Below, piece after piece: positions 10,720-59,284 of a stretch of 64,000 nt of DNA (within the stretch, counting starts at the first letter, position 1; each line of letters opens with the position of its first letter). The DNA is from Candidatus Sericytochromatia bacterium (lineage in GTDB: Bacteria; Cyanobacteriota; Sericytochromatia; S15B-MN24; JAQBPE01). Below the pieces are notes generated by a model. That model was not told the origin of the DNA and searched no databases. It saw nothing but the letters and a program-made list of their open reading frames with translations. The stretch spans positions 62,001-126,000 of the forward strand of contig JAYKJB010000016.1 of the NCBI GenBank assembly GCA_035285325.1, in the 5' to 3' direction. Made by a program: the position numbers and the translations under genes.

Positions 10720-10733
10720 CGCGGCGATGCCCC

Positions 10734-10762: not shown

Positions 10763-10804
10763 GACGCGTCGCCGCTCGGTCCTTGTTCGCGTGAAAGGCA
10801 GTTC

Positions 10805-12037
10805 ATGGAAAAGCTGACGGGTCTTCTTGGTATCGCCGTCATCCTCGGACTCGCCTACGCCCTGTCGACCGACCGGCGGGCGATTCGCTGGGCGCAGATC
10901 GGTTGGGGCCTCGCGCTGCAGGTGGCTCTGGCGGTGTTCATCCTGTGGACGCCGCTGGGACGTGCCTTCTTCGAAGCGCTCGGCGCTGGCGTGACTCGGC
11001 TGCTCGACTTCTCCAACCTCGGGGCAGCCTTCGTGTTCGGATCGCTGGTCACGAGGCCGGAGATGGGCTTCATCTTCGCCTTCAAGGTGTTGCCTGCGAT
11101 CGTGTTCGTGGGCAGCTTGATGGGCATCGCGTACTATCTCGGCATCATGCAGGCCGTGGTCAGCTTCATCGCCAAGATCATGGTCAAGACGATGAAAACC
11201 AGTGGCGCTGAGAGCCTGTCGGCCGCGGGCACGGTGTTCGTGGGCCAGAGTGAGGCACCTTTGCTGATTCGGCCCTATCTGGCGTCCATGACCCGCTCGG
11301 AGTTGAACGCCATCATGACGGGCGGAATGGCCACCATTGCGGGCTCCGTGATGGCGGCCTACATCGGCATGTTGGGTGCTGAATGGGCGCCCCATCTGCT
11401 GGCCGCGTCGATCATGGGCGCCCCGGCCGGCTTGGTGATGGCCAAGCTGCTCTGCCCCGAAACCGAACAACCTCAGACCGGTGGTGACGTGAAGCTGGAG
11501 GTGGCGGTGCAGGAAAGCTCCGTGATCGAGGCCGCGGCCAAAGGGGCCAGCGAGGGCATGCACCTCGCCTTCATCGTGGCCGCCATGCTGATCGGCTTCA
11601 TCTCCCTGCTGGCGCTGGTCAATGCGGGGTTCGGATATCTGGGAGGGCTCGTCGGCTACCCCAACCTCACCCTCGAATTGATGCTGGGTTATGCGTTCAT
11701 GCCGCTGGCGCTGGCGATGGGGACCCCTTGGGCGGACGCGCAGACGGTCGGGGGCCTGTTGGGGCAGAAAATTATCCTGAACGAGTTCGTGGCCTACGGG
11801 AATCTGGCTGAGATCCTGAAACCGGGCGGGGTGGAACTGTCCACCAAAGCCATCACGATTGCCACCTTCGCCCTGTGCGGCTTCGCCAACGTGTCCTCCA
11901 TCGCCATCAATATCGGCTGCATCGGCGGTCTGGTGCCGGAACGGCGCGGTGAACTCGCGCGGCTGGGCTTGCGGGCCATGACGGGTGGCGCGCTGGCGTC
12001 GTGTATGACGGCGACGATCGCCGGCATCCTGGTCTAG
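10805..12037 (+). CDS. CNT-family (NupC-like) nucleoside transporter, copy 1
   Basis: A 410-aa inner-membrane concentrative nucleoside transporter. N-terminal helices precede the conserved core: GTVFVGQSEAPLLIRPYL, the ESSVIEAAAKGASEGMHLA segment and GTPWADAQTVGGLLGQKI with NEFVAYG. These are hallmarks of the NupC/CNT family, which imports nucleosides with H+ or Na+. A second copy follows after 10 bp. The predicted promoter at 10734-10762 and an AAAGGCAG ribosome site precede the ATG. Confidence 0.9.
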   Translation: MEKLTGLLGIAVILGLAYALSTDRRAIRWAQIGWGLALQVALAVFILWTPLGRAFFEALGAGVTRLLDFSNLGAAFVFGSLVTRPEMGFIFAFKVLPAIVFVGSLMGIAYYLGIMQAVVSFIAKIMVKTMKTSGAESLSAAGTVFVGQSEAPLLIRPYLASMTRSELNAIMTGGMATIAGSVMAAYIGMLGAEWAPHLLAASIMGAPAGLVMAKLLCPETEQPQTGGDVKLEVAVQESSVIEAAAKGASEGMHLAFIVAAMLIGFISLLALVNAGFGYLGGLVGYPNLTLELMLGYAFMPLALAMGTPWADAQTVGGLLGQKIILNEFVAYGNLAEILKPGGVELSTKAITIATFALCGFANVSSIAINIGCIGGLVPERRGELARLGLRAMTGGALASCMTATIAGILV

Positions 12038-12047
12038 GAGGCCCCTG

Positions 12048-13289
12048 GTGCCGATTCAACTCGTGAGCGTCTGCGGGATCGGGTTGCTGGTGGCGATCGC
12101 CTGGCTGCTCTCCACTTCGCGTCGAGACATCGCCTGGAAGACCGTGGGCGTTGGCTTTGCGATTCAATTCGCGCTGGCGCTCTTCATCCTCAAATTTCCC
12201 TGGGGGCAGTGGCTGTTTCAGAAGGCCGGGGCCGGCGTGACGGCGTTGCTGGATTTCTCCAAGCAGGGCGCCGGCTTTGTGTTCGGCAAGCTGATGGACA
12301 CGTCTTCCTTTGGCTTCATTTTTGCCTTTCAGGTGCTGCCCACGATTGTCTTCATGGCTTCGGTCATTTCGGTGCTCTACTACCTGGGGGTGGTGCAGCG
12401 AATGGTGGCGGCGCTGGCCTGGGTGATGCGCAAGCTGATGGGCACGAGCGGCCCGGAAAGCCTCTCGGCCGCGGCCTGCGTCTTCGTCGGTCAGGTGGAA
12501 GGCCCCTTGCTGGTGCGTCCTTACATCGCTTCGATGTCGCGTTCCGAGTTGATGGCCCTCATGACCGGCGGGATGGCCACCATCGCAGGCGGCGTGATGG
12601 CGGCTTACATTGGCCTGCTGGGCGGCCAGTGGGCGCCGGCGTTGCTGGCCGCCTCCCTGATGGGCGCGCCCGGGGGCCTGGCGATGGCCAAGTTGATCGT
12701 TCCGGAAACGGAAAAAACGGCGGCGGCCGGGGGCGATTCGGTCGCCACCCTGCACGTCGTCAGTCAGGAAAGCTCGGTGATCGAGGCGGCGGCCAAGGGG
12801 GCGTCTGATGGGATGCATCTGGCCTTCACCGTCGCCGCCATGCTGCTCGCCTTCGTGTCGCTGGTGGCGATGCTCAACGGGGGCCTGGCTCTGCTGGGTG
12901 GTTTTGTCGGCCATCCGACGATGTCGCTGGAAAAGATTCTGGGTTGGGCCTTTTTTCCACTGGCCCTCGCCTTGGGAGCGCCGTGGGCGGATGCCTCGGC
13001 GGTGGCCCACATGATTGGCACGAAGCTGGTGCTGAATGAGTTCCTGAGCTATGCCGCATTGGCTGACACGGTCAAGAATCACACGATGTCCGACCGCGGC
13101 GTCATGATTGCCACCTTTGCCCTGTGTGGCTTCGCAAACCTCAGTTCAGTCGCTCAGAACGTCGGCGGCATCGGTTCCATGGCGCCGGAACGGCGTGGGG
13201 ACCTGGCGCGGCTGGGGCCCCGGGCCATGCTGGCCGGGGCACTGGCTTCCTGCATGTCGGCGGCGATGGCGGGTGTGTTGATTCCGTGA
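12048..13289 (+). CDS. CNT-family (NupC-like) nucleoside transporter, copy 2
   Basis: A 413-aa paralog of the preceding transporter, with the same core: CVFVGQVEGPLLVRPYIASM, ESSVIEAAAKGASDGMHLA and GAPWADASAVAHMIGTKLVL. The substrate-region residues differ (GQSEAP versus GQVEGP), so the two copies may prefer different nucleosides. GTG start at 12048, preceded by an AGGAGG ribosome site. The stop overlaps the next start by 1 bp, coupling it to the DprE1-like gene although the functions look unrelated. Confidence 0.88.
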   Translation: MPIQLVSVCGIGLLVAIAWLLSTSRRDIAWKTVGVGFAIQFALALFILKFPWGQWLFQKAGAGVTALLDFSKQGAGFVFGKLMDTSSFGFIFAFQVLPTIVFMASVISVLYYLGVVQRMVAALAWVMRKLMGTSGPESLSAAACVFVGQVEGPLLVRPYIASMSRSELMALMTGGMATIAGGVMAAYIGLLGGQWAPALLAASLMGAPGGLAMAKLIVPETEKTAAAGGDSVATLHVVSQESSVIEAAAKGASDGMHLAFTVAAMLLAFVSLVAMLNGGLALLGGFVGHPTMSLEKILGWAFFPLALALGAPWADASAVAHMIGTKLVLNEFLSYAALADTVKNHTMSDRGVMIATFALCGFANLSSVAQNVGGIGSMAPERRGDLARLGPRAMLAGALASCMSAAMAGVLIP

Positions 13290-14635
13290 TGGCCGCACCG
13301 ACCGTGGAACTCAGCGGCTGGGGACGCCGACCGAGAGCCCTCTGTTCCTTGTATCGCCCGGAGAAGCGTCAGCACCTGGTCAGCTTGCTTACCACCGGGG
13401 AGGGCACCCGGATCGCGCGAGGGCTGGGGCGTAGCTACGGCGATCAGGCGCTCAACCCGCAAGGCGTGATCAGCTTGGAACGCCTCGACCGCATGCTCAG
13501 TTTCGACGACGAATCCGGCGTGCTGGTGTGTGAGGCCGGCGTGTCGCTGGCTGACATCCTGTCCGTTTTCCTTCCCCGGGGCTGGTTTCCCGGCGTCACG
13601 CCTGGCACCAAGCACGTGACGGTGGGGGGGGCCATTGCCAATGACGTGCATGGCAAAAACCACCACGTGGACGGGAGTTTTGCGGCCTGGACCCTTGGCT
13701 TCACGCTCCTGACGCCAGCCGGCGAGGTGCTGGAATGTTCGCGTGAACTGAATCCCGAGGTTTTCTGGGCGACCCTGGGGGGCGCGGGCCTGACGGGGGT
13801 GGTGCTCCTGGCTGCCATTCGGCTGCGCCGGGTGACTTCCGCTTTCATGAAAGTCGATTACCGCCAGGTGGCCAACCTGGATGATCTGATGGGGACTTTG
13901 GAGGTTCATGACCCCCGACATACCTATTCCGTCGCCTGGGTGGATGCCCTGGCGCGCGGGCGCTCGCTCGGGCGTGGCGTCACCATGCACGGGGACCACC
14001 TCGAGGCGGAGTTTCTGCCCGCCCGCTGGGGGCCGCCTCTGGCGACGCGTCCGCGTGGGACGATCGCCGTTCCCTGCGACATGCCGGCTGGTCTCATGAA
14101 TCGCGCCACGGTGGGTGCGTTCAATGAGGTCTTCTGGCGGGTTCATCGGACTCGCTATGCCTGCGTGGTCCCGCTTGAACCTTATTTCTATCCCCTGGAC
14201 CGCTTGCACGCCTGGAATCGCCTGTACGGGGCTGGGGGCTTCGTGCAGTATCAGGTGGCCTTTCCCTTTGCCACCGCTCGGCGCGGGCTGGCGAGGGTCC
14301 TGGAACGCCTCTCCAGCGTGGGGGCGGCCTCCTTTCTGGCCGTCATCAAGCGCTTTGGCGATGCCACGCCGGGCCCCTTGTCGTTTCCCATGCCTGGCTA
14401 CACCCTGGCGCTGGACCTTCCGTTTCAACGGGAAACCCCAGGCCTGCTGGCGCAGTTGGATGCTGCGGTGCTGGAACACGGCGGCCGACTGTATCTGGCC
14501 AAGGACTCGCAAACCGATGCCCGCACCCTGCGGGCCATGTATCCGGACCTGGATGCCTTTCGTGACCTGCGTGAACGCCTCGACCCGGATCGGCGTCTCA
14601 GTTCGTTGCAGGCGGTTCGGTTGGGGTTGGTGTGA
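13289..14635 (+). CDS. FAD-linked oxidase of the DprE1 type (decaprenylphosphoryl-ribose 2'-oxidase-like)
   Basis: A 448-aa FAD-binding type 4 oxidase. The FAD domain includes RIARGLGRSYGDQALN and PGTKHVTVGGAIANDVHGKN with the conserved His residues; the substrate-binding half ends with IKRFGDATPGPLSFPMPGY. The close match to mycobacterial DprE1 and the immediate DprE2-like and UbiA-like neighbours support oxidation of a polyprenyl-phospho-ribose. The residue aligned by eye with mycobacterial DprE1 Cys387 is Ala374 (TLALDLP). The ATG overlaps the transporter stop by one base; a longer frame from 13124 is a shadow of that gene. The substrate lipid here is inferred. Confidence 0.82.
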   Translation: MAAPTVELSGWGRRPRALCSLYRPEKRQHLVSLLTTGEGTRIARGLGRSYGDQALNPQGVISLERLDRMLSFDDESGVLVCEAGVSLADILSVFLPRGWFPGVTPGTKHVTVGGAIANDVHGKNHHVDGSFAAWTLGFTLLTPAGEVLECSRELNPEVFWATLGGAGLTGVVLLAAIRLRRVTSAFMKVDYRQVANLDDLMGTLEVHDPRHTYSVAWVDALARGRSLGRGVTMHGDHLEAEFLPARWGPPLATRPRGTIAVPCDMPAGLMNRATVGAFNEVFWRVHRTRYACVVPLEPYFYPLDRLHAWNRLYGAGGFVQYQVAFPFATARRGLARVLERLSSVGAASFLAVIKRFGDATPGPLSFPMPGYTLALDLPFQRETPGLLAQLDAAVLEHGGRLYLAKDSQTDARTLRAMYPDLDAFRDLRERLDPDRRLSSLQAVRLGLV

Positions 14636-43683: not shown

Positions 43684-46600
43684 ATGATCAACCTAGCTCC
43701 TCGTTTTCAGACGCTCGAGTTGCTAGGCCGTGGAGGAATGGGCGAGGTCTGGCGAGTGCGCTGTGAGCGCACCGACCAGGAAGTGGCCTTGAAGGTGTGC
43801 CTGAGCCCCGATGAGACGGGGCGCTTGCAGTTCCGGCAGGAATTCTGGGTGATGTCGACCCTGCGTCATCCCTCCTTGATTCCGGCCCTCGAGGCGGGCG
43901 AAACCGAGGACGGGCGTCCCTTTTTCACGATGCCCATCGTGCGCGGGACAGATGCGTCGCCCGGGATGCCGGAGGCCCAGGTGCGTGCGTGGCTGCCGGG
44001 CGTGCTGTCGGCGCTGGACTTTCTCCACCAGCGTGGTTTCGTTCACGGGGACATCAAGCCGGAAAACATCCGCCTGACGGACGATGGCGGTGTGCGCTTG
44101 ATGGACCTGGGCTTGTTGCGTCGCTCGGGGCGACCCGCTCCCATCAGTGGCACCTTGGCCTACGTTCCGCCTGAACTGGTCTTGGGGCGTGCGGTCGATG
44201 GGCGCAGCGACCTTTATATGTTGGGCGCCGTGCTCTACGAACTTCTGGCCGGTGTCGCCCCCTTCTCCTCGGCCCGGACGGATGCCCTTTTGCGCGCGCA
44301 CGTCTCCCAACATCCGGCGCCCCTCCGCCAGGTGATACCAGCCGTCTCCCTCGAGATGGACTCCGTGGTGGCGCGGTTGCTGGAAAAAAATCCCGCTGAC
44401 CGATTCGCCAGCGGGCAGGAGGTGCTGGCCGCGCTGGGCTTGGAGTCGGCGGACGATGAATCCGCCACGCTCTGGACGCCTCCCTTGCTCGGGCGGGAGG
44501 TCCTGCAACGAGACCTGGAGGCCTGGAGTGTGCAGGCGGCACCCGACCCGCCCCTGCGCGCCATTCAGGGGGGCGCGGGGTTCGGCAAGACCCGTCTCCT
44601 GGAGGAGTTGGTTGCCTTCGCGCGCCTGCAGGGTGAGGTCTGTGTGCTGGGGGCGGGCATGGGCAGCGAGGCGACCCCCTACCAGGCCCTGGCGCCGTGG
44701 GTCAGTCACCTCTGGGAACTGGCCGCGGCGGACGTGCGGGAGCGCCTGGGGCCTTTCCTCACCACCGTCTTGCCTCACCTGGCCGACCAGGCCGCCCGCT
44801 CGCTGGAGGGCTCTGCCGAGCGGACCCGCTTTTTCGATTCGGTGGCCCTCCTCGCCGAACATGTGGCGCCTCGCCTGACCTGGTGCCTGGATGATGTTGA
44901 ACGACTCGACTCCGATTCGTCGGACCTCGTGTTGTTCCTCAAAAAGCGTGGTGAGACCCTGCAGTGGCGCTGGCTGGTGGCAGGTCGGGACTTACCGGAG
45001 AAAATGGTCGAGTCGGCGCCGGTGGCGACCCTGGCGGCCTTCAGCCCGGAACAGTCTCGGGGGCTGTTGGCCACGATGCTGGGTGGAAAGGTGCCCGAGG
45101 CCGTGGCACTCCAAGCGATTGCCCTGGCCGAAGGGGTGCCGGGCTCGGTGGAGTTGTTGGCCCGGCACTGGGCCCAACAGGGCATCTTGAAGAAGCGCCG
45201 GGGCCAGTGGTACGTGACCCGCGAAGGCGACCTCGTGGCCTCAGGTGGGATCGAGGGTCTGGCCGACTCCTCCTGGACCACGCTTGAATCGGCCGCCCGC
45301 TCCCTGCTCGACCTGGCTGCCGTGCTGGGGGAACGTGCCTCATTGGCCGATCTCGCCCAGCTCTCCGGTCTGGATGACACGGCCTTCTTCGCCGCGCGTT
45401 CCGCCCTTGAACAGGCTGGTTTGTTGCTGGCAGAGGATGGGGCGTATCGCTTTCTGCGGCCCGGGCAGATGCCTCGCATCCTGGCTGCGTGGGACCCCTC
45501 CGCGCGACGGGAACAGCACGCGCGGATCGCTGTGTTCTTCGAGGCGCGCACACCCCTGGCTGATTGCGTCCGCAGGCGCGACCTGGGCACGTTGCTGCGG
45601 ATTGCCGGTCACTGGGTGGAGGCAGGGCGACTGGGGGAGGCGTGGCCTTGGGTCGAAGCCGCCACGCGCCTGTGTCTGACCCGCGGGACCACCACCACGG
45701 TGATTTCCCTGGTCAATGCGATGCACACCTCAAGCGACCTGCAACCGCGCGTGCTGCTCGCGTTGGCCGGCCTGGAGGTGTATATCCTGCGTCATCAGGG
45801 ACAGTTGGATGAGGCCATCGCGCGCTATGACGACGGATTGCTCGACCGCTTCGTGGCGCAGAGCGATCGCGAGGCCGGGGAACACCTGATCACCTATGCC
45901 ACGATGGTGCAGCAAAAGGGCCGCTATGACCAGGCAGCCGAGAAGACGCGCCTCGGTATCGAACGAGCGCGCCGCGTGCAGGACTGGGCGACTGTCGTCC
46001 GCGGGCAGTTCGGTCTTGGTCGCATGCATTATTTCCAGGGTGATTCCGTGCAGGCCGTGGCGCAGATTGAAGAGGCGATCGCCTTGGCCCGCCAGCACGG
46101 CTTGACCTCGAGCCTCCCGCCCATGTTGAGCCTGGCCGGTTATATTCTCTCGTCGGCGGGGGAGGCGGAGATGCCTCGCGCCATGGCCTTGATGACCGAG
46201 GGGTTGAAGCTGGCGCGAGAGGAGGACAATCTCTACGACTCCGCGGAAGCGCTCAACAACCTGGGCAATGTCTTGATGGCGGGCGGAAAATTCAGTGCGG
46301 CGAAGCGCTATTTCGAGGAGTATCTCGTTCTGTGCGAGCGAATGGCCCTGCCCGGCGAGGAAACCTTCGCGCACTTGAACGTGGCCTCCGTGGCGTTGGA
46401 GCTAGGTTATCTGGCCGATGCCACTTACCACACTGACGTTGCCCTGAAAATCTGTCGTCCCGCGGGCCGTCGCTTTCCGGAAGCCTTTGCCATGGTTACC
46501 CAGGGGGCCTTGAAGATTCAGGCCGGAGAGCCGGATGCCGGTTTGGCCCTGATCCAGGCGAGCCTCGATCTGACGCGGGAGATTTCCAATCGTTACCTGG

Positions 46601-48198
46601 AAAGTCAGGTATTGGCGTTTCAGGCGGAGGCGGCCATGTTGACCGGCCAGCTCGACTGGGCGGAAAGCTTGCTGGCGCAGCTAGAGGCTGACCCTGCCAA
46701 TTCGGAACACAGTGAGCAGGCGGCTCGCCTGGCCCGCGTGCGGGCTGGGCTGGATTCCGTGCGTGATGCGGCGGCGTTTCTGCGCAGGGCGGAGGCGGCG
46801 GCTGGAAGCGATGCGCCCTTGCCCGGGGTCACGTTGCATGTGCTGCGCTGGGGGGGATGTGCTGCCCTGCGAGGCGGTGAAGCCGAACGGGCCGAGAGGT
46901 TGCTGCGGGCTGCGGCAGCCCTGGCAGAGGCCGAGCAGATCAAGGGAGTCGCCCTCGAAGTTGAAATCTTGCGGGCGCTGGCGGCCGAAGCCCAGGGAGC
47001 CTATGGCCGGATGGCGGATCGCTTGGCTCGGGCGACGGCGTTGGCGGAAGAGACCCGGGCGACGCACGCGCAGCAGTGGATCGCCCTGCTGCGGGCTTAC
47101 ATGCCCTCCGGCTCGTTGAGCCAGTCGCAAGCGGCCTTGGGGTATTTACATGCCTGGCGTCAGCGATTGCCGAGGGAATCTGTCTCGGCGGCCCTGCAAC
47201 TGGAGTGTCGTGACCTGATATTGGCTCAGGAGGCCACCTGCGAGATGTCCCAACGCACCACCGGACTGGCTGCTGCCATGTGTGAGGTCTCCGCGGCGTC
47301 GACGCCCGAGGACGTCATTCGCGTCGCGTTGGGGGCGCTTCTGACGCTCTTCACGGCGCGCTCCGTTCATGTGGCCACCTTTCAAGGATCTGGCTTGAGC
47401 GGGCTCGAATCGGCGGGCACGCTGGTCGATAACGAGCGTGAGGCTATTCTGGCGGCGGCCTGGGACGTGCATGCCACCGGAGAGGAGAGACTGCTCCAAC
47501 TGGAGGGTCAACACGGACACGAGCCGTCCGCGGTTCTGGCCGTTCCCTTGCCGGCTCAGGACCGCTTGCGCGTCTGGATCTTGCACGTGCCTCAACGTCC
47601 CGACCTTGAACCTGCTGCCGTGAGGCAGGCAGTGGCCTTCGTGGCACGCATGGCTGCCAACAAGCTGGATCTGGCTCATGCCGAATCGCGCGAGGGCGGC
47701 GGATCGGTGAGCGCAAGCTTGGCGCTGCAGGCGGCCAAGGCCGCGCTGGATGGCAACGACCCGATGGAGAGAGTCTCGGCGCTGGCCGCAGAAACCCTGC
47801 GTGCCTTCAACGCCCGTCGGTTGCTGCTGCTGGCGCAGGAGGGGGGCAGGATGCGCTGCGAGGTGGCCTTCGGCCCCGACGCGGAGGTCTTGAACCCGGA
47901 GTGGCAGATCTTCACCAAGGGGCTTGCGCGTCAGGTCTTCAACGAGAAGAAACCCCAATTTTTTGACGCCACCGAAGGCGATGCTGGCCCGACGCGTGCC
48001 AGTGTGCGGGCCTTGGATCTGCACTATGTGCTGGTCGCTCCCCTGAGCCAGGGTGATGTCACCCGGGGGGTGCTCTACCTCGACCTGGAGCACGGGGTGT
48101 CGTCCGAGGCGCATGCGCTTGAAACGCTCGAGGCCCTGGCCGGGGTGTGGGCCGCGATGAGCAAGGTCATTGCGGCGACGGCGCTCCCGCAAACCTGA
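43684..48198 (+). CDS. Giant Ser/Thr kinase - AAA ATPase - TPR - GAF signalling protein, 1504 aa
   Basis: Residues ~10-260 are a Hanks-type kinase: GRGGMGEVW loop, Lys37 in VALKV, H121-G-D123-I-K-P-E-N catalytic loop (HGD rather than HRD), D141-L-G, and GTLAYVPPELV. Residues ~270-560 form a STAND/AAA-type ATPase with Walker A GGAGFGKTR near 295-303 and LTWCLDDVERLDSD as Walker B. Residues ~600-1160 are helical TPR-like repeats (YDQAAEKTRLGIERAR; AEALNNLGNVLMAGGKFSAA). Two GAF-like domains follow (~1200-1335 and ~1345-1500). No membrane segment. Related architectures are known in Cyanobacteria, Myxobacteria and Chloroflexi. The stop overlaps the flavoprotein gene by 1 bp. Confidence 0.87.
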   Translation: MINLAPRFQTLELLGRGGMGEVWRVRCERTDQEVALKVCLSPDETGRLQFRQEFWVMSTLRHPSLIPALEAGETEDGRPFFTMPIVRGTDASPGMPEAQVRAWLPGVLSALDFLHQRGFVHGDIKPENIRLTDDGGVRLMDLGLLRRSGRPAPISGTLAYVPPELVLGRAVDGRSDLYMLGAVLYELLAGVAPFSSARTDALLRAHVSQHPAPLRQVIPAVSLEMDSVVARLLEKNPADRFASGQEVLAALGLESADDESATLWTPPLLGREVLQRDLEAWSVQAAPDPPLRAIQGGAGFGKTRLLEELVAFARLQGEVCVLGAGMGSEATPYQALAPWVSHLWELAAADVRERLGPFLTTVLPHLADQAARSLEGSAERTRFFDSVALLAEHVAPRLTWCLDDVERLDSDSSDLVLFLKKRGETLQWRWLVAGRDLPEKMVESAPVATLAAFSPEQSRGLLATMLGGKVPEAVALQAIALAEGVPGSVELLARHWAQQGILKKRRGQWYVTREGDLVASGGIEGLADSSWTTLESAARSLLDLAAVLGERASLADLAQLSGLDDTAFFAARSALEQAGLLLAEDGAYRFLRPGQMPRILAAWDPSARREQHARIAVFFEARTPLADCVRRRDLGTLLRIAGHWVEAGRLGEAWPWVEAATRLCLTRGTTTTVISLVNAMHTSSDLQPRVLLALAGLEVYILRHQGQLDEAIARYDDGLLDRFVAQSDREAGEHLITYATMVQQKGRYDQAAEKTRLGIERARRVQDWATVVRGQFGLGRMHYFQGDSVQAVAQIEEAIALARQHGLTSSLPPMLSLAGYILSSAGEAEMPRAMALMTEGLKLAREEDNLYDSAEALNNLGNVLMAGGKFSAAKRYFEEYLVLCERMALPGEETFAHLNVASVALELGYLADATYHTDVALKICRPAGRRFPEAFAMVTQGALKIQAGEPDAGLALIQASLDLTREISNRYLESQVLAFQAEAAMLTGQLDWAESLLAQLEADPANSEHSEQAARLARVRAGLDSVRDAAAFLRRAEAAAGSDAPLPGVTLHVLRWGGCAALRGGEAERAERLLRAAAALAEAEQIKGVALEVEILRALAAEAQGAYGRMADRLARATALAEETRATHAQQWIALLRAYMPSGSLSQSQAALGYLHAWRQRLPRESVSAALQLECRDLILAQEATCEMSQRTTGLAAAMCEVSAASTPEDVIRVALGALLTLFTARSVHVATFQGSGLSGLESAGTLVDNEREAILAAAWDVHATGEERLLQLEGQHGHEPSAVLAVPLPAQDRLRVWILHVPQRPDLEPAAVRQAVAFVARMAANKLDLAHAESREGGGSVSASLALQAAKAALDGNDPMERVSALAAETLRAFNARRLLLLAQEGGRMRCEVAFGPDAEVLNPEWQIFTKGLARQVFNEKKPQFFDATEGDAGPTRASVRALDLHYVLVAPLSQGDVTRGVLYLDLEHGVSSEAHALETLEALAGVWAAMSKVIAATALPQT

Positions 48199-49260: not shown

Positions 49261-50364
49261 TTAGAAGGCCTCGTCTTCGAGGAGGTCTTCGTCTTCCTCG
49301 ATTTCGGCTGGCGCTTCCGTGGTCAACTGCCCGGCTTGCTCTTGTTGAATGAGTGCCAGTTTGCGTCGGACGAGGCTCTCAATCTCTTGCGCCATGGCGG
49401 GATTGCCTTCCAAGAAGGCGACCGTGTTGTCTCTTCCCTGGCCGATCTTGTTGTCGCTATAAGAGAACCAAGCGCCACTCTTCTGGACGATGCTGTGCTC
49501 GACCGCCACATCCAGGATGCATCCCACGCGATTGATCCCTCGGCCGAACAGGATGTCGAACTCTGCGACCCGGAAAGGAGGCGAAACCTTGTTTTTGACG
49601 ACTTTGACCTTTACTCGGTTGCCGAATTCGGCGCCGTCTTTTTTGAGCGTCTCAACCCGCCGCACCTCCAGACGTACACTGGCATAAAAGCGCAGCGCCC
49701 GCCCGCCCGTGGTGGTTTCCGGATTGCCGAACATGACCCCGATTTTCTCGCGGATCTGGTTGATGAAGATGACGGTACACTGGCTTCGCCCGATGGCGGC
49801 TGTCAGCTTCCGCAGCGCCTGGCTCATCAGGCGCGCTTGAAGTCCCACGTGACTGTCGCCCATCTCCCCTTCGATTTCAGCTTTGGGCACCAGGGCCGCG
49901 ACCGAGTCCACGACCACGAGTTCCACCGCTCCCGACCGAACCAGGGCTTCCGTGATTTCAAGCGCCTGTTCCCCGGTATCAGGTTGGCTGACCAGCAGGT
50001 TGTCGATGTCGACTCCCAAGGCCTGCGCGTACGCTGGGTCCAGGGCATGCTCGGCGTCGACGAAGGCGGCAATACCACCCGCCTTCTGGACCTCGGCGAC
50101 GGAATGCAGGGCGACCGTGGTTTTACCGCCTGACTCAGGTCCATAGACCTCGATGATGCGGCCCTTGGGCAGGCCCCCCACGCCAAGCGCCAGGTCCAGG
50201 GTCAATGCCCCGGTCGGAATGGCTTCGATGCGCATCTTGGCGGCATCACCCAGTTTCATGATGGCGCCCTTGCCGAACTGCTTTTCAATCTGGGCAATGG
50301 CGTTTTTGAGCGCTCCATCACGGTTGGCGTCAATCCGGGAACCGGTGGCATCCATTTTGGCCAT
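49261..50364 (-). CDS. recA: Recombinase A
   Basis: A 367-aa DNA recombination and SOS co-protease. Walker [30 protein letters not shown] (Walker B), loop L1 ([20 protein letters not shown]), [19 protein letters not shown] (loop L2) and FGRGINRVG are unmistakable. The C-terminus is acidic ([14 protein letters not shown]), as usual. The start at 50364 has an AAGGAG site; an apparent extension to 50613 is spurious because it crosses the LexA-box promoter. Confidence 0.97.
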
Positions 50365-50427
50365 GGCGAGTAGACTCCTTTGGGTTTGAAGCGGGGGCGC
50401 GGTGCGTCCGTTTGAAGGATTTGGATT

Positions 50428-50441
50428 CGAATATTTGTTCG
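50428..50441 (-). promoter_or_regulatory. LexA (SOS) box 1 upstream of recA
   Basis: Reads CGAACAAATATTCG on the minus strand, matching the Gram-positive/cyanobacterial-type LexA consensus CGAAC-N4-GTTCG with one mismatch. It lies 64 bp before the recA start and just downstream of a possible -35 TTGCCC, so bound LexA would block the promoter. Confidence 0.65.
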
Positions 50442-50460
50442 ACTCTCGGGGCAAGATTAC

Positions 50461-50474
50461 CAAACATCTGTTCG
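50461..50474 (-). promoter_or_regulatory. LexA (SOS) box 2 upstream of recA
   Basis: Reads CGAACAGATGTTTG on the minus strand, again one mismatch from CGAAC-N4-GTTCG, starting 33 bp from box 1 (about three helical turns). Paired boxes suggest cooperative LexA binding. Confidence 0.6.
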
Positions 50475-50597
50475 ATGCGCAAGTGCCCTGGCTCACATGC
50501 GGGCCTGCCTCATGTTTCTGGCTGGGATGCCCCCAGGGTATAGAAGGACCGGCAACTTGGAAACGTGCTTTGGGACGCCAGGGAGGATGATGGGCCG

Positions 50598-50735
50598 ATG
50601 CCGGAAACGACAACCGAGACCAAGCGTTGGGTCTGTTCGCGCTGTGGTTACGTGGAGGAAGGGGAACACCCCCCGGATCTCTGTCCCTTTCCTGATTGTG
50701 GGGCCGGGCCCGAGGATTTCTATCTCGAAGATTGA
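50598..50735 (+). CDS. Rubredoxin/zinc-ribbon-like small protein, 45 aa
   Basis: A short gene from ATG 50598 to TGA 50733-50735, with GGGAGG about 12 nt upstream. The peptide contains [16 protein letters not shown] and LCPFPDCG, i.e. two C-x-x-C/C-x4-C pairs around an acidic loop. This matches the rubredoxin-like zinc/iron domain seen at the end of rubrerythrins. It probably binds Zn or Fe and may be an electron carrier or regulatory tag. It diverges from recA. Confidence 0.7.
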
Positions 50736-52629: not shown

Positions 52630-55422
52630 TCAGACCCGACACACCACCGGAGGCGGAGCGAGGGGCTCGTGATGAGGCTTTTTGAAGAGCGTGATGGTCA
52701 ACTTGGCCGGGTTGAAGACGTTGTGGTTGTGGGTCGTCGGGGTGGTGAGAATGAACTGCGCACGGGACGCCTTCAAAAAGTCGCCGACCTCGTCGATGCG
52801 CTCCACGGACAGATGCGCGAAAGGCTCGTCCAGAATGAAGAATCCGGGGCCCTGGCCACCATCGCCGTCCGTCAGGGCCATGAGCAACAACAAGCTGACG
52901 ATCACCTTTTGACCGCCAGACAGGTCGGGGTCCGACAGGGGGCGAAGGTCTTTTCCGTCATAGGCCACCTGGACATGGACGCCGGCCTTCTCGATGCCAT
53001 CGTCGTCCGCTGACAGTTTCGGCAGTTCCATCTGGAGCCTGATGTTGGCTTTCTCCGCCAGCCGCAGCGCGTTGCCACGATATTCTTCAAGAACCTGTTC
53101 CACCAGGCGGATGTAACTGCCTCGGCAAGCCTTCAGTTCGGCCTCACCTTCGTTGACTTCCCGCAGCCGACGCGTGACGAAGCTCTCCTGGGCCTGGACG
53201 TTTTCAGCCTGCTTTTCCCAGAGCGTCACGATGGCCGGGTCTGTGCAGCCCGCGTAGCGACCCAGCTCTCCTTCCATCTCGTGGATGCGCAGACGCACCA
53301 CGTCGGGCAGCGGAATGCCTGCCAGCGCCTCTGGCGTGCGGCTGGCTTCCGGGATCACCTCTTCCAAACGCCGGCGGTTGGTCTCCAGGGCTGCGAGTTG
53401 AGGTCCTCGGCTGGCCAGTTGGGCTGAGAGCGAATCGATCTCTCGCTGTAGCCGGGCCAGGTCGTGTTCGGCCTGGCTGGCATCCCGATCGGCGTTGGCT
53501 GCAGCCTGGGCCTTGGTAATGATCTCATCCTGCGCGCCCTTGAGTTGCGCTTCCAAGGTATTCAGCTGGCTCTGCCAACCTTCACGACGCGCCAGCAAGG
53601 CTTCGTATTCTGGGCGAATGCGTTCCCATTCCTGGCGTTTTTCCTGGTCGGCGAGGGCTTGTCGGCGCTCGGCCAGTTCCTTGGCGTAGAGTTGAATGTC
53701 ACGCTTGACGTCGCGGGCTTCTTCTTCAATCTCGGCCACGCGCTTGAGCCCTTCCTGAGCCCGCGAGGTCACGCCCATCTGACCCAGGTAGCATTCTCCG
53801 GGACGCACCCCGATGAAGATGCCGCCACGCCGGTCGACCTTGTATCCGTCTGGGGTGATGGCCGCTTGGAAACGCCCGATCACGCTCTTGGCTTCCTGGA
53901 CATCCTCGACCAGGGCGGTCTCGTTCAGTCGTTCCAGGATCCAGCGCGGTACGCGGGAATCCAGCACTTTGACCGCTGCCAGGGCAGACCCTGCCCGGGG
54001 GGCCAGGGATTGGTCACGGTTCGGCTCGCACATGTAGTGGCGGTAACGTCCCCGGCGGGCCAGTTCCAAGGCCGCCACGTGGTGTTGCGGCGCCACGATC
54101 CAGTTGAAGCGATCGCCACCGACCACCGACTCGATCGCCAGTTGCCAACGTTGATCCACCACCTCCAGGGCTTCCGCCACCAGCGTCGCGGGGATCTCCG
54201 CGTCCCGCAGGGTCGTGCGCATGTCGTTCACGAAGGGAGGATAGACGACCTGCCCCTTTTGCAAGGAGGCCAGGACGGCCAGCAGTTCCTTGCGTTGTTC
54301 TTCCAGGCGATTGAGACGCGCGCGGGCCTCACCCACGGCCTCCTCGGCCACGTCCACATCTGCTTGCAAGCTTTCCATGTCCTCTTCGAGGACCCTTTCA
54401 GCCGCCAGGCGTGCTGACTCGAAGCGGCCGACGGCCTGATCGAGTTCCCGTCCTTCCTGCATGATGCCCTTGCGTTCGAGATCCAGGCCCTGGCCGCGCT
54501 CTCGCGCCGCTGCCAGGTCCGCCGTGAGGGTGGCCTTTGCCTCGATTTCCTTCGCGTGAAAAGCCTTCAGGGCTTCCTGGTCGCCCTTCAAGGCTCCCAG
54601 GCGTTGTTGGCCGTTTTCCAGGTCTGGCCCCAGGCGTTTCAGGTCGTTCATGACGTCCTTGTATTCAGCCAGTGGCAGCAAGGTGTTGCGGTAGTGCGCG
54701 ACCTGGCCGTGGCGGTCCCGAAATACATCGAATTCCCGCTTCTGACGCTCGAGCCGTTCCAGCGAAGCCTGTTCCACGCCCAGCCGTTTGGTTTGTTCGT
54801 CCAGGTCGGCGAGGGCCCGGTGATAACTGTCCTTGGCTTCCTGGTACCGGTCAAAGACCTGGCGCTGTCCCTTGATCTGCATCACATAGGTGAACAACTC
54901 GTGAGGTGTCCGTTCGCAAAGCTTGTTGGTTTCCCCCTGCTCGATGGCCAGGATCGAGAGCAAGGAACGGCTGACGCCGGCTTTGAACAGGATGTCGCTG
55001 TATTCCACTGGCCCCAGCATCTTGTTCTGCGTGAAGGCGGCCTGGATGTCCGAAAAAGGAGCTTCCCCCGGCAAGATCACGTAGCGACTTTCGACGCTAC
55101 CGGCCGAGGGAACCAGCACACAGGCCAGGGTGACCAGATCATCCTGAATGTTGAGACAACGAAAGGGGCGGCCCACTTCCGATTCATAGTTGCTGACCAG
55201 GGCGGAAACCACCGTCATCTGACGCTTGTCGCGCATGTATTTGTTGCGCCGGCGTTTGGTCGACAGGCGTGGCGCATTCAGGATGATGCGAATGCCGTCC
55301 AGAAAGGTGGTCTTCCCGCTTCCATTGGGTCCCGCCAGCATGACGATCGGCTCATCGAGCGGTACCGACACCGGGCGCCAGCAATCCCAGTTGGAAAATG
55401 AGAGCTTCAGAATTTTGAACAT
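52630..55422 (-). CDS. SMC-like coiled-coil ATPase of a MukBEF/MksBEF/Wadjet-like complex
   Basis: A 930-aa ATPase. N-terminal head with Walker A GPNGSGKTTFLDG (about residues 31-43); a first coiled coil (~175-395); a globular hinge-like segment (~400-560) with SVVGGDRFNWIV and PDGYKVDRRGGIFIG, resembling SMC hinges; a second coiled coil (~575-800); C-terminal head with signature DLSGGQKVIVSLLLLMAL and Walker B GFFILDEPFAHLSVER. It is shorter than bacterial SMC (~1190) or MukB (~1490). The ATG at 55422 is used; a TTG 21 bp earlier is possible. It is last in an operon with two partners, so it likely loops or extrudes DNA. Confidence 0.78.
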   Translation of the reverse strand: MFKILKLSFSNWDCWRPVSVPLDEPIVMLAGPNGSGKTTFLDGIRIILNAPRLSTKRRRNKYMRDKRQMTVVSALVSNYESEVGRPFRCLNIQDDLVTLACVLVPSAGSVESRYVILPGEAPFSDIQAAFTQNKMLGPVEYSDILFKAGVSRSLLSILAIEQGETNKLCERTPHELFTYVMQIKGQRQVFDRYQEAKDSYHRALADLDEQTKRLGVEQASLERLERQKREFDVFRDRHGQVAHYRNTLLPLAEYKDVMNDLKRLGPDLENGQQRLGALKGDQEALKAFHAKEIEAKATLTADLAAARERGQGLDLERKGIMQEGRELDQAVGRFESARLAAERVLEEDMESLQADVDVAEEAVGEARARLNRLEEQRKELLAVLASLQKGQVVYPPFVNDMRTTLRDAEIPATLVAEALEVVDQRWQLAIESVVGGDRFNWIVAPQHHVAALELARRGRYRHYMCEPNRDQSLAPRAGSALAAVKVLDSRVPRWILERLNETALVEDVQEAKSVIGRFQAAITPDGYKVDRRGGIFIGVRPGECYLGQMGVTSRAQEGLKRVAEIEEEARDVKRDIQLYAKELAERRQALADQEKRQEWERIRPEYEALLARREGWQSQLNTLEAQLKGAQDEIITKAQAAANADRDASQAEHDLARLQREIDSLSAQLASRGPQLAALETNRRRLEEVIPEASRTPEALAGIPLPDVVRLRIHEMEGELGRYAGCTDPAIVTLWEKQAENVQAQESFVTRRLREVNEGEAELKACRGSYIRLVEQVLEEYRGNALRLAEKANIRLQMELPKLSADDDGIEKAGVHVQVAYDGKDLRPLSDPDLSGGQKVIVSLLLLMALTDGDGGQGPGFFILDEPFAHLSVERIDEVGDFLKASRAQFILTTPTTHNHNVFNPAKLTITLFKKPHHEPLAPPPVVCRV

Positions 55423-55479
55423 GGTTTCAATTGCTCCGGTCAAACCTCTCCGCGCACGGACGAGGAATCCATCCTGGCG

Positions 55480-56439
55480 TCAGGTGTGAGGGGGGAGGTC
55501 CGAGCCATCAGCGACAGGATCCCAGACGATCGGACCAGCGGCTGCCTCGGCCAGAGCCGCAGCGGCGTGCCAGCCCATCTCCTCGCCGGTCGTCTCCTCG
55601 GATTCTTCCGGGACAGGCTGTTCGGCCAGCACCTTGGCCAGGGTGCTTTGTCGGAGAAAGGCAGACAGCTTCTGGCTGTCTCCGAGCAGATCGAGAAACG
55701 GACCCGCTTTGATCTCGTCCTTGCGGACGTATTCAAGAAAACCCAGACGTTTCAACTGGCTCACGTACATCTCGAAGCGTCGCCCGCCCAGCTTCTTGCC
55801 GAACTCCGCGTTGAGCGCCTCGAAGGACACCACCGGTTCTGAAATACCGCCTTCTCGGCCCTCCTCCGCCAGCCGCTGCGGCAGGACCAGTCGGGCCCAC
55901 AGCACCACCAGCAGGGCCAGGGCGTTGCGGTCGAGTTCGGCCAGGTTGGTGATGCGTTCGGTGCGATTGCCAGGGCCATCCGCGAGCGCCAGGCCGTAGT
56001 AGCGGGAATAGGGGCTCCAGGCCAAGGTCAAGCCGATGCCGTTCAGGCGGCGCTCCGCTTCGGCGCGCTTGGCTGGGTCCATCAACGACTTGGCCTCTCG
56101 ACGCGCCAGGAAACCCTTGTGGAAGAATGGGGCGAGCACGCCAGCAATTTCGTCGTTTTCCGCCACGCGTCCCACGGCATTCTCCGGAACGTCGTATGCC
56201 GCTACGGGTTCCAGCAAGGCCGCATCATCGGTCTCGCGGAACCCGCCTGCCGGAGTCGCCACGGAGGGGCCGAACGTCTCGGTCGCGGTGCCTGACGTCA
56301 TGTCGACCGGAACCGGGGTCTCGAATCCAGGCAGGTCGAGGCCCACGAATCGGGCCACGTCTCCCGTGGGGGCAGGCGTAAAACGGGGTTCGTTCGGCCC
56401 GGTTGCGGGCGTGCCCTCTGCTTCAAACGGCGCGTCCAT
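55480..56439 (-). CDS. MukE/JetB-like (KITE-type) accessory subunit of the SMC-like complex
   Basis: A 319-aa protein. The first ~95 residues are Pro/Thr/Glu-rich and probably disordered. The remainder shows two winged-helix-like units: EIAGVLAPFFHKGFLARRE with RLNGIGLTLAWSPYSRYYG, then FEALNAEFGKKLGGRRFEMY with LKRLGFLEYVRKDEIKAGPF. This two-wing arrangement with a strand pair after 'L-x-x-I-G-L' resembles MukE/MksE and JetB (DUF4194-like) proteins. The start has an AAGGAT ribosome site and overlaps the upstream subunit by 17 bp; the ATPase starts 57 bp downstream. Assignment is by order, size and pattern, not by alignment. Confidence 0.62.
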   Translation of the reverse strand: MDAPFEAEGTPATGPNEPRFTPAPTGDVARFVGLDLPGFETPVPVDMTSGTATETFGPSVATPAGGFRETDDAALLEPVAAYDVPENAVGRVAENDEIAGVLAPFFHKGFLARREAKSLMDPAKRAEAERRLNGIGLTLAWSPYSRYYGLALADGPGNRTERITNLAELDRNALALLVVLWARLVLPQRLAEEGREGGISEPVVSFEALNAEFGKKLGGRRFEMYVSQLKRLGFLEYVRKDEIKAGPFLDLLGDSQKLSAFLRQSTLAKVLAEQPVPEESEETTGEEMGWHAAAALAEAAAGPIVWDPVADGSDLPPHT

Positions 56440-57805
56440 GAGAATCCTTTCGAACGATCGCGTGTGGCCTCAGGTAGGCCTCGGTGATCTCTTTGATCAT
56501 GGTGGTAGGGGAATGCAGCAGGGTGGTCTCGTCCGGCCGGTCGACGTGCAGGGGAACGACCTTGAGGCGCTGCACGGGGGAGTCGGAACGTTCACCTGGG
56601 GCGACGGGGGTGCCCACCAGCGGCAGCAGCGACAAACGATACAGGGCCAGGGCCGGCTCATCGACGGTGGCAAATTCGTACAGCGGAATCAGGGTCTTGG
56701 CCGAGGCGAATTTCTCGAGGTCGGCGACGGCCTCGGCGATCGTCTCCCGGTTGTGGGTGACGACGGTGGTGGTGGTCACGGGAACGGGTTCGTTCCATTC
56801 CTCCTCCTCGAGTTCAATCAACTCCCGATGGAGGTGATACTCGGCCGCTGATACCAACAGGGCCTCGTCGAAGAAGGGGGGGATGAAGGCAGGGCAGCGG
56901 AAGGCGTCCTTGGCAATTGCGGCGAGCTGGTCGACGTCTGCCGCCATCAGCATGCGCGTGATATCGAGCTGGTTGATGCCTCCTTCCAAAGACACGAACT
57001 GCTCGCCCATGCCCGTCAGCACCCGGATCAGTTCAGACCGGTAGGCGTGGAGCTGGCTGAGATGCTGATGAATGGCCTGATATTCGGTTTGGATCTCCCG
57101 CCGCCCCAGGTCCAGCCCATCCAGCACCCGGCGGGTTTCCTGAGAGAGGGCCAGACACTGGTCGAGCTGGTCTTGCACGGCGACCAGTCGAACCTCCGAG
57201 TGCGAGTCCAGCGCCTCCATCAGCGATTGGGTCAGTACATCGAAGCGCGAGCGCAAGTTGTACAACACGTCCAGCGGGTCGTAGCCCATCTGCAGGCAGA
57301 ATTCGACACCGTACAGGGCAATGCCCATTTCCTGACGTTGGGGCGACGCTTGCGCCAACATGCCCAGCATGGCGGCCGCGTTGACCCCCATTTCCGTCCA
57401 GCTGTAGCCGCGCGTCCGGTCGAAGTCCAACCATCCATACTGGCGGAAGGTCGAGACCAGATGGTCGAGGGCCTCGGCGTTCAGCCACGGCAGGATGCGC
57501 TGCATGGTCTCCTTGTCCCAGAAGCGCTCGCGACAATCGGCAAACAGTTCCCGGATGAAGGCCACGCGCACGACAAACGCCGCTTCATTGGCCCCCCGGG
57601 TGAGGGCCAGAAAGAGCGGGAACAGGGCATGGAAGCCTTGGTGAAGGCGCAGGGCATCGACCTGCTCAGCCCGCCAGCCGTCGGCCAAAAACTGCTCGAC
57701 CGCTCGCCTGCGGACGGAGCCGGGAGCGGCGGCTTCTTCCTCGCCGGCCAGCGGGTTGAACGCGACCGGTCCGGGCGTCGTGGATGGGGGAGATTCGAGG
57801 GGCAT
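56423..57805 (-). CDS. MukF/JetA-like (kleisin-type) subunit of the SMC-like complex
   Basis: A 460-aa protein, first gene of the operon. After a short Pro-rich N-terminus, residues ~30-150 look like a winged helix (LVSTFRQYGWLDFDRTRGYSW; TEMGVNAAAMLGML). Residues ~170-310 are long amphipathic helices (DVLYNLRSRFDVLTQSLMEA; IHQHLSQLHAYRSELIRVL), as in the middle domain of MukF. The C-terminal third mixes helices with an acidic ELIELEEEEW stretch and could carry the second winged helix that binds the ATPase head. No ScpA similarity is obvious. Assignment as kleisin-like is inference from gene order and pattern. Confidence 0.58.
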   Translation of the reverse strand: MPLESPPSTTPGPVAFNPLAGEEEAAAPGSVRRRAVEQFLADGWRAEQVDALRLHQGFHALFPLFLALTRGANEAAFVVRVAFIRELFADCRERFWDKETMQRILPWLNAEALDHLVSTFRQYGWLDFDRTRGYSWTEMGVNAAAMLGMLAQASPQRQEMGIALYGVEFCLQMGYDPLDVLYNLRSRFDVLTQSLMEALDSHSEVRLVAVQDQLDQCLALSQETRRVLDGLDLGRREIQTEYQAIHQHLSQLHAYRSELIRVLTGMGEQFVSLEGGINQLDITRMLMAADVDQLAAIAKDAFRCPAFIPPFFDEALLVSAAEYHLHRELIELEEEEWNEPVPVTTTTVVTHNRETIAEAVADLEKFASAKTLIPLYEFATVDEPALALYRLSLLPLVGTPVAPGERSDSPVQRLKVVPLHVDRPDETTLLHSPTTMIKEITEAYLRPHAIVRKDSHGRAV

Positions 57806-58060: not shown

Positions 58061-59284
58061 ATGGGAAAGCTCGGGCTGGTTCTCTCCGGCGGCGTATCGA
58101 AGGGCGCCTATGAGCTGGGTGTGATCCGCGCGATGGCCGAGCGTGGGATCGAACCCGACGTGATCGTGGGCATCTCCGCCGGGGCTATGAGCGGCGCCAT
58201 GATGACGGGCCTGATGCTGGGGGGGAATTTCTGTCCGGAACGCGTGGACGACTTCATGATCCGCACCTGGACCGAGCGGGTGAACCTGCGTGGGTTCTAC
58301 CACAGCTTCGACGGGGAGGATGGGCCTGGTGACCTGGAACGCAAGTCGCTCAACAACCTGTTCCTGCGGTTCGGGATCGACCCCTTTGAACGCATCTTCA
58401 TTCCGACCCGCTTTGATTCCCGATCGATCGGGACGCTGGAGACGATCTTGCGGGGGCAGTTTGTCTCGTTGTTCTCGCACTCGCTGTTTCGGAAACTGGC
58501 CCAGGAATGGAATTTTCCCACCAGCAACGCGCGTTCGGTGAAGTTTTCCGCTGCCATCTGCAACCTGTTGGGTCAAACCACCCTCAGGCCCGAAGATGAG
58601 ACCATCGAGCGGGCCTGGGCTCATTTCGAGGACTTTCACTGGTATCCCGGCCTGGCCCCCTCGCAGAACTTCATTCAGTTCAATCGCATGCTCGATGTGG
58701 TGATGGCCAGTTCCTCCTTTCCGCTGGCCTTCCCGCCGATGCGGATGACGCTGCCCGGGGCCAGCCAGCCCGGCATGTTCATCGACGGCGGAATGACCGA
58801 CCACGCGCCCATCGGCAAGGTGATCAAGCTGGACCCCGAGGTGGATACCGTCTTGGTGGTGATGGCCACGACCATCGTGCCGCCCCCGGAGCAGGACCCA
58901 GATGACATCGTGAAGGTGTTCAATCGGATGGCCGAGATGCTGGCCGGGAAGTTCATCATCAACAACTATCACCAGGTTCAAAAGGTCAACAAGCGCATTC
59001 AGGCGCTGCACCGGTTGTTCCAGCGGGACGGTGAGGGCGAGGTCTTGAGAAACGAATTTAACCAGGATCTGGCGGTGGCCGCCGGATTCGAGAATCTGGA
59101 CGCCTTTCTGGCTCGGCGGGTGGTACGGTTGATTCCCATCATTCCTTCGGCGCCTTTGAAGGGGGATCTGTTCGCGGGTTTCAAGGACCGAACGCTCATG
59201 CTCGACTACATTGAACGGGGGCTCCAGGATGCCCGTGTGATCCTGGACCAGCGCCTGGTGTCCAACCGGGAGGCTCCCGCTTGA
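58061..59284 (+). CDS. Patatin-like phospholipase
   Basis: A 407-aa acyl hydrolase. The oxyanion loop LVLSGGVSKGAYELG, the nucleophile elbow GISAG and the catalytic Asp in FIDGGMTDHAPIG form the patatin Ser-Asp dyad. No signal peptide, so it is cytoplasmic or exported by another route. The start follows AGAGGAA. The C-terminal ~150 residues after the catalytic domain are charged and helical. It likely cleaves phospholipids or acyl lipids; one could imagine membrane remodelling, but the substrate is unknown. Confidence 0.9.
   Translation: MGKLGLVLSGGVSKGAYELGVIRAMAERGIEPDVIVGISAGAMSGAMMTGLMLGGNFCPERVDDFMIRTWTERVNLRGFYHSFDGEDGPGDLERKSLNNLFLRFGIDPFERIFIPTRFDSRSIGTLETILRGQFVSLFSHSLFRKLAQEWNFPTSNARSVKFSAAICNLLGQTTLRPEDETIERAWAHFEDFHWYPGLAPSQNFIQFNRMLDVVMASSSFPLAFPPMRMTLPGASQPGMFIDGGMTDHAPIGKVIKLDPEVDTVLVVMATTIVPPPEQDPDDIVKVFNRMAEMLAGKFIINNYHQVQKVNKRIQALHRLFQRDGEGEVLRNEFNQDLAVAAGFENLDAFLARRVVRLIPIIPSAPLKGDLFAGFKDRTLMLDYIERGLQDARVILDQRLVSNREAPA

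What the first reader, a model, noticed from the sequence alone, without database searches (positions are those of the whole stretch)
52630..57805. Non-canonical SMC-type complex operon (kleisin-like, KITE-like, short SMC-like ATPase)
Three tightly spaced minus-strand genes have the order of MukFEB/MksFEB/JetABC. Seen: SMC-like head halves (GPNGSGKTT; LSGGQK and ILDEPF), two coiled-coil arms and a hinge-like segment in a 930-aa chain, with partners of 319 and 460 aa that have winged-helix-like patterns. The head signature reads more like Smc/RecN than MukB, while the partners look Muk/Jet-like rather than ScpA/ScpB. It may be an undescribed branch of bacterial SMC complexes.
Basis: partly seen in the sequence, partly recalled or inferred. 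Interest (0 to 1): 0.8.

Follow-up and report, generated by a model that had tools for sequence, protein, structure and literature searches.

The report
Divergent condensin replacing bacterial Smc
A poorly known, probably non-photosynthetic cyanobacterial lineage lacks the standard chromosome-folding machine (Smc-ScpAB) and instead carries a divergent three-gene relative of the MukBEF/Wadjet family whose motor protein reads as an intermediate between the standard and MukBEF-like types, without the DNA-cutting partner used in plasmid defence.

Summary
Three co-directional genes at 57805-52630 (-) encode a 460-aa presumed kleisin, a 319-aa KITE-type protein and a 930-aa SMC ATPase with intact Walker A, Q-loop, signature and Walker B, two short arms and a hinge. 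The KITE matches DUF4194 (MksE/JetB; E=7e-5, below the curated cut-off). The SMC's hinge matches both JetC/MksB (P=2e-5) and Smc (P=1e-4) hinges, although those two do not detect each other. Its Q-loop is Smc/Rad50-like; its NW motif and the proline replacing the H-loop histidine are Muk/Mks/Jet-like. Trees put it, with two plasmid relatives, in its own branch; nesting inside the sampled Smc is rejected (AU p<=1e-4). The Variovorax relative is followed by a JetD nuclease gene; none is found here. Smc, ScpA, ScpB, MksB-type and DUF3375 genes are undetected here and in the only other family member (76% identical, same neighbourhood), while other families of the class carry Smc-ScpAB or MksBEF. 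Best reading: a nuclease-less, divergent Muk/Mks/Wadjet-group condensin serving as this lineage's chromosome organiser. The kleisin assignment rests on position, size and pattern only. New variant of a known kind.

The parts
56423..57805 (-). First gene: 460-aa kleisin candidate (position of MukF/MksF/JetA); winged-helix-like pattern about aa 95-150, long helices about aa 177-264
   Evidence: ORF; 74% identical in G041; mostly helical prediction, low confidence; no family match with a clear meaning; no significant profile match to MksF/JetA or ScpA: assignment by position and pattern
55480..56439 (-). Second gene: 319-aa KITE-type subunit (MksE/JetB-like)
   Evidence: DUF4194 E=7.4e-5, 23.0 bits, below the 32.7-bit cut-off; G041 homologue E=0.001 on the same region; homologue beside the Variovorax JetC-like gene, Z=25.5; profile P=5.4e-4 to MksE/JetB
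55705..55836 (-). Winged-helix motif of the KITE-type subunit (aa about 202-245)
   Evidence: predicted E-H-H-E-E with block pLDDT 73-82; no significant fold match to any PDB entry
52630..55422 (-). Third gene: 930-aa SMC-type ATPase
   Evidence: PF02463 SMC_N 57.9 bits; 76% identical in G041
55306..55332 (-). Walker A GPNGSGKTT
   Evidence: conserved in G041 and Variovorax
54934..54939 (-). Q-loop (Q161-G162 in IEQGETNKLCERT), Smc/Rad50-like, not aligned in MksB/JetC type I
54259..54852 (-). N-terminal coiled-coil arm (about aa 190-387, about 200 residues)
   Evidence: boundaries approximate
53770..54258 (-). Hinge (aa about 388-550)
   Evidence: PADLOC JetC1 models match, mostly at their hinge positions, best E=3.6e-9; an Smc-hinge control gives none; profile P=2.3e-5 to JetC/MksB hinge and 1e-4 to Smc hinge
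53095..53769 (-). C-terminal coiled-coil arm (about aa 551-775)
   Evidence: boundaries approximate
52909..52923 (-). ABC signature LSGGQ
52825..52842 (-). Walker B FFILDE
52738..52740 (-). Proline (LTTP) at the usual H-loop histidine position, as in MksB/JetC (VTP) and MukB (AAP); Smc, SbcC and RecN have H

Best explanation
The three genes encode a complete, nuclease-less SMC complex of the MukBEF/MksBEF/Wadjet group, of a divergent branch. By analogy with that group, two SMC chains dimerise at the hinge, the first-gene protein bridges the two heads as a kleisin, the KITE dimer sits on the kleisin and helps load DNA, and ATP binding and hydrolysis drive DNA entrapment and loop extrusion. Because the lineage has no detectable Smc-ScpAB or other MukBEF/MksBEF, and no JetD nuclease was found, the complex most likely acts as the chromosome-organising condensin rather than as anti-plasmid defence. 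Shown: the gene set, intact ATPase motifs, KITE similarity, hinge and head affinities, co-conservation and synteny, and failure to detect the alternatives. Inferred: the kleisin role, complex formation, loop extrusion and the housekeeping role.
For: Gene order and overlap. SMC family and motifs. KITE is DUF4194-like. The hinge hits JetC models only, with an Smc-hinge control negative in the same library. H-loop proline and NW motif shared with Muk/Mks/Jet. The best tree is compatible with joining JetC+MukB (AU p=0.74-0.77); nesting in the sampled Smc is rejected, p<=1e-4. The Variovorax relative pairs KITE + SMC + JetD, JetD1 E=2.5e-15. No JetD domain in G000 or G041. No ScpA, Smc, ScpB, DUF3375 or MksB in either genome. 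In 8 of 8 genomes of three other families of the order Smc-ScpAB is present; most f5/f6 genomes have MksBEF instead. The operon is the best conserved stretch of its neighbourhood: 74-76% identity against 39-72% for flanking genes.
Against: The kleisin candidate has no detectable similarity to MukF, MksF, JetA or ScpA and its model is poor. The KITE model gave no significant fold match. The DUF4194 match is below the curated cut-off. Grouping with Smc as sister is not rejected (AU p=0.09-0.10). smc, scpA and scpB are neighbours in G021, so one assembly gap could hide all three in a genome (G000 is 98.6% complete, G041 95%), although both genomes would need it. Only two genomes carry the close form.
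Confidence: 0.66

Rival explanations
1. It is a Wadjet-like anti-plasmid or anti-phage defence system whose effector is unlinked, divergent or lost.
For: The closest relatives with context are on plasmids; in Variovorax RA8 a JetD-type gene lies directly downstream, overlapping by 4 nt. Wadjet-group proteins often serve defence (PMC10586767).
Against: No JetD domain in either genome; conserved chromosomal context across two genera and higher conservation than neighbouring genes, which is not typical of defence genes; it is the only Smc-ScpAB- or Muk/Mks-type complex detected in these genomes.
Confidence: 0.16
2. It is a highly derived descendant of the lineage's own Smc-ScpAB that lost sequence similarity and changed gene order.
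For: Smc-like Q-loop; Smc-like second half of the hinge (P=1e-4); sister to Smc not rejected (AU p=0.09-0.10); Smc-ScpAB is undetected exactly where this complex is present.
Against: Nesting inside the Smc of its own order is rejected (p<=1e-4); the KITE resembles MksE/JetB more than ScpB; gene order and H-loop proline are Muk/Mks/Jet features; the nearest relatives outside the family are plasmid-borne in other phyla.
Confidence: 0.13
3. It is a Rad50/Lamassu-like repair or defence ATPase with unrelated neighbours.
For: Head segments also match generic AAA/ABC defence ATPases such as mad3 and LmuB in PADLOC.
Against: A JetC/Smc-type hinge is present and a KITE-type subunit is co-conserved in Variovorax and probably Miltoncostaea; no Mre11- or LmuA-type partner was seen nearby.
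Confidence: 0.05

Closest known systems
MksBEF / Wadjet type I (JetABC) of f5-f6 genomes in the same class and of plasmids
   Same: kleisin-KITE-SMC order; DUF4194-like KITE; hinge similarity; NW motif; proline at the H-loop; MksBEF of f5 genome G004 also has no JetD next to it
   Different: SMC 930 vs 1120-1166 aa with shorter arms; Smc/Rad50-like Q-loop retained; KITE below the DUF4194 cut-off; no DUF3375 kleisin
Smc-ScpAB (canonical condensin; present in sister families f2-f4)
   Same: Q-loop and second half of hinge resemble Smc; presumed housekeeping role
   Different: No ScpA or ScpB similarity; H-loop proline; not nested in the sampled Smc; 930 vs about 1180 aa; different gene order (smc-scpA-scpB in G021)
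MukBEF of E. coli
   Same: Gene order F-E-B; proline at the H-loop; NW motif; no JetD
   Different: MukB is 1486 aa, has a different Q-loop region, and shows no significant hinge or KITE profile match
JetC-JetD locus of Variovorax plasmids (NZ_LR594690.1, NZ_LR594663.1)
   Same: About 28% identity over the C-terminal half (E=5e-32), matching N-terminal half and KITE
   Different: Carries JetD; gene split by IS1071, upstream part truncated near an IS66 element, so it is a broken copy
Miltoncostaea oceani plasmid trio (374, 182 and 718 aa)
   Same: Three overlapping genes in the same order; head clusters with ours at bootstrap 100; KITE-like second gene (P=0.0035)
   Different: Shorter still; its kleisin candidate is not detectably similar; on an 816-kb plasmid

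Membership tests
MukBEF/MksBEF/Wadjet (JetABC) group | SMC ATPase with coiled-coil arms and hinge, head halves at both ends | tested here: met
MukBEF/MksBEF/Wadjet (JetABC) group | Three-gene operon in order kleisin-KITE-SMC | tested here: inconclusive
   Order, spacing and sizes fit and the KITE is supported, but the first gene is not shown to be a kleisin
MukBEF/MksBEF/Wadjet (JetABC) group | KITE of the MksE/JetB family (DUF4194) | tested here: inconclusive
   E=7.4e-5 but 23.0 bits against cut-off 32.7; profile P=5.4e-4 to MksE/JetB, decoy 0.43
MukBEF/MksBEF/Wadjet (JetABC) group | Kleisin with sequence similarity to MksF/JetA (DUF3375 for type I) | tested here: not met
   DUF3375 not found in G000; no PADLOC JetA match; profile P=0.24. 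Sequence level and type I only; the fold is untested, so membership is proposed at the level of the group, not of a named type
MukBEF/MksBEF/Wadjet (JetABC) group | Proline in place of the H-loop histidine (seen in all sampled MukB/MksB/JetC type I) | tested here: met
MukBEF/MksBEF/Wadjet (JetABC) group | SMC groups with JetC/MksB/MukB in phylogeny | tested here: inconclusive
   Best tree compatible (AU p about 0.75), sister to Smc not rejected (p=0.09-0.10)
Wadjet defence system | JetD Toprim nuclease | tested here: not met
   PF09983 absent in G000 and G041; one control genome and four class members do match
Smc-ScpAB | Smc above the TIGR02168 cut-off | tested here: not met
   P0001 91 bits vs cut-off 567; nesting in the sampled Smc rejected
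Smc-ScpAB | ScpA and ScpB partners | tested here: not met
   PF02616 and PF04079 absent in G000 and G041; partners not significantly similar to ScpA/ScpB
Chromosome condensin (function) | Loop extrusion; nucleoid or segregation phenotype | not testable with these tools
   needs experiment

The most novel reading that the evidence does not exclude
This is a separate, undescribed class of bacterial SMC complex, neither Smc-ScpAB nor any named MukBEF/MksBEF/Wadjet type, which branches near the split between Smc and the Muk/Wadjet group, keeps features of both, and has replaced Smc-ScpAB as the sole chromosome condensin in one family of probably non-photosynthetic Cyanobacteriota.
Probability: 0.33. 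Interest if true: 0.82.

Novelty: new variant of a known kind. Interest (0 to 1): 0.62.

Why it matters
How Wadjet and MukBEF arose from Smc-ScpAB is unresolved; a review (PMC10586767) only speculates that Wadjet came from Smc-ScpAB and later gave MukBEF/MksBEF, and calls the relationship unresolved. This branch is similar to both sides where, in the samples used here, they are not detectably similar to each other (hinge: P=2e-5 and 1e-4 versus 0.13), so it is a useful intermediate for working out that history. It also comes from a class in which Smc-ScpAB, MksBEF and this complex appear as mutual substitutes in neighbouring families: a natural series for asking how a cell swaps its chromosome-folding machine. 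The short-armed, small subunits may also suit structural work.

Tried and rejected
AlphaFold of the kleisin candidate with two sequences: mean pLDDT 41, unusable. AlphaFold of the KITE core: pLDDT 55, winged helix well modelled, but the fold search gave no significant hit; MukE-MukF entries appear only at E=1.6-2.5, which is not evidence. The apparent kleisin hit in G035 (E=2e-5) lies in an ORF whose sequence looks like a GNAT acetyltransferase; rejected. The P0001 hit at G000:C40 is a coiled-coil chance match. Full-length PADLOC scores to JetC1 (105 bits) are largely coiled coil, so heads and hinge were rescanned alone. An initial ScpB comparison used wrong reading frames and was redone; several ScpB/ScpA rows there still carry untrimmed upstream stretches, so that negative is weak. 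The public genome-contig scan found only the known relative (it used two short peptide patterns, so it is insensitive); three viral-contig scans and the phage records found none.
Full report
Observation. The three reading frames exist as described. On the minus strand, in order of transcription: 57805-56423 (460 aa), 56439-55480 (319 aa, start codon inside the end of the previous gene) and 55422-52630 (930 aa; the ATG is favoured because the relative in G041 also aligns from MFKIL). The 930-aa protein carries Walker A GPNGSGKTT, a Q-loop IEQGET, the signature LSGGQK and Walker B FFILDEPF, with a hinge-like segment at about aa 388-550 between two arms of roughly 200 residues each. Pfam SMC_N matches at 57.9 bits.

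Where it is found. The host genome (G000, 98.6% complete) belongs to the phylum of cyanobacteria: the one named relative is 'Cyanobacteria bacterium RYN_339'. Its class is probably the non-photosynthetic Sericytochromatia; that name is my inference, not a tool result. Of 386 genomes sampled from the phylum, only G000 and G041 encode the SMC at high identity (in which only the two best candidates per genome were scored; one search scored all candidates in the 18 genomes of the class). Flanking genes are shared in order, and the operon is the most conserved part of the compared stretch: SMC 76%, KITE 74%, kleisin candidate 74%, against 39-72% for flanking genes.

What the genome lacks. ScpA (PF02616) is found in 134 of 146 phylum genomes but not in G000 or G041. 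Smc (TIGR02168) and ScpB (PF04079) are found in all eight genomes of the three other families of the order (f2-f4); no ScpB and no full-length Smc match is found in G000, G041 or families f5-f7 (the TIGR02168 hits in G000 and G041 are the coiled coil of this protein). MksB/JetC type I, DUF3375 and the JetD C-terminal domain are also undetected in G000 and G041. Families f5 and f6 lack Smc-ScpAB, but five of their seven genomes carry DUF3375 and DUF4194 genes and MksB; the two without are only 74% and 83% complete. The f7 genome has a locus with the sizes and order of a Wadjet type III set plus a JetD match. Thus the class shows a pattern of substitution. A caveat: smc, scpA and scpB sit together in G021, so a single gap could hide them; both f1 genomes would need that gap.

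Affinity of the KITE subunit. It matches DUF4194, the MksE/JetB family, at E=7.4e-5, below the curated cut-off. A homologous fragment lies directly upstream of the Variovorax SMC gene (Z=25.5), and the second gene of the Miltoncostaea trio is weakly similar (P=0.0035). The profile of these four matches MksE/JetB at P=5.4e-4 (reversed decoy 0.43), and ScpB only at 0.05. The AlphaFold model shows a fairly confident winged helix but no significant fold match.

Affinity of the SMC subunit. The hinge alone matches eleven PADLOC models, all JetC1, mostly at their hinge positions (best E=3.6e-9); an Smc hinge from the same class matches none, and the Variovorax hinge behaves like ours. As far as I know PADLOC holds no Smc model, so this shows JetC affinity but does not exclude Smc; indeed pairwise scores to some Smc hinges are as high. 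By profiles, our hinge matches JetC/MksB (P=2.3e-5) and Smc (P=1e-4), whereas those two do not match each other (P=0.13) and a reversed decoy gives 0.2. In the heads, the N-terminal half is slightly nearer Smc and the C-terminal half nearer JetC/MksB (whose head part is unaffected by the frame error in its ScpB part). The Q-loop stretch is Smc/Rad50-like; the NW motif and the proline in place of the H-loop histidine are shared with MksB, JetC and MukB. Trees give our proteins, Variovorax and Miltoncostaea a separate branch, with MksB/JetC/MukB on one side and Smc, RecN and SbcC on the other (heads and combined data; bootstrap 58-93 for the deep splits; on the hinge alone Miltoncostaea falls elsewhere). 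Nesting within the sampled Smc is rejected (p<=1e-4); sister to Smc is not (p=0.09-0.10), nor is joining JetC+MukB (p about 0.75). These are deep splits with few sequences.

The first gene. It is mostly helical by prediction and has a winged-helix-like stretch around aa 95-150, but no sequence comparison with MukF, MksF, JetA or ScpA is convincing and the model is poor. Calling it the kleisin rests on position, length and the presence of the other two subunits.

Relatives with context. On Variovorax plasmids the C-terminal half of a related SMC gene is followed by a JetD-type gene, overlapping by 4 nt in RA8 (the protein scanned, from the WDL1 copy, matches JetD1 at E=2.5e-15). The SMC gene is split by IS1071 and the KITE gene upstream is truncated near an IS66 element, so it is a broken copy. 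The Miltoncostaea trio shows no JetD next to it. Hence the branch includes a form linked to a Wadjet nuclease, and ours lacks one. [quoted passage not shown]

Conclusion. The most economical reading is a divergent, nuclease-less member of the Muk/Mks/Wadjet group working as a condensin in a lineage without Smc-ScpAB. Mechanism (ring, loop extrusion) is inferred by homology. Whether the branch deserves a class of its own depends on a wider phylogeny; JetC types II and III were not in the tree, though PADLOC models for them do not match our hinge or C-terminal head.

Noticed in passing
L088 (G050:C150) 4026-11829, minus strand: Genes of 359, 547, 253 and 1472 aa in an order and with sizes like a Wadjet type III system; the 359-aa gene matches JetD_C. 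This genome has no Smc-ScpAB detected.
   Followed up: partly
L052 (G004:C28) 8242-13711, also L053 and L054: MksF (DUF3375), MksE (DUF4194) and MksB with no adjacent JetD in G004; these f5 genomes lack Smc-ScpAB, so MksBEF may be their only condensin.
   Followed up: partly
L067/L069 (NZ_LR594690.1) and L070 (NZ_LR594663.1): A Wadjet-like KITE-SMC-JetD locus on Variovorax plasmids split by IS1071; in WDL1 the two halves lie about 30 kb apart.
   Followed up: partly
window 43684-48198 (+): 1504-aa protein with an N-terminal Ser/Thr kinase-like region, an ATPase/repeat region and GAF-like C-terminal parts (read by eye).
   Followed up: no
window 58061-59284 (+): Patatin-like phospholipase candidate (GGVSKGAYELG, GISAG) divergent from the SMC operon, at the same place in G041.
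   Followed up: no
window 49261-50613 (-): recA close to the operon; its open reading frame has a long extension upstream of the likely start.
   Followed up: no
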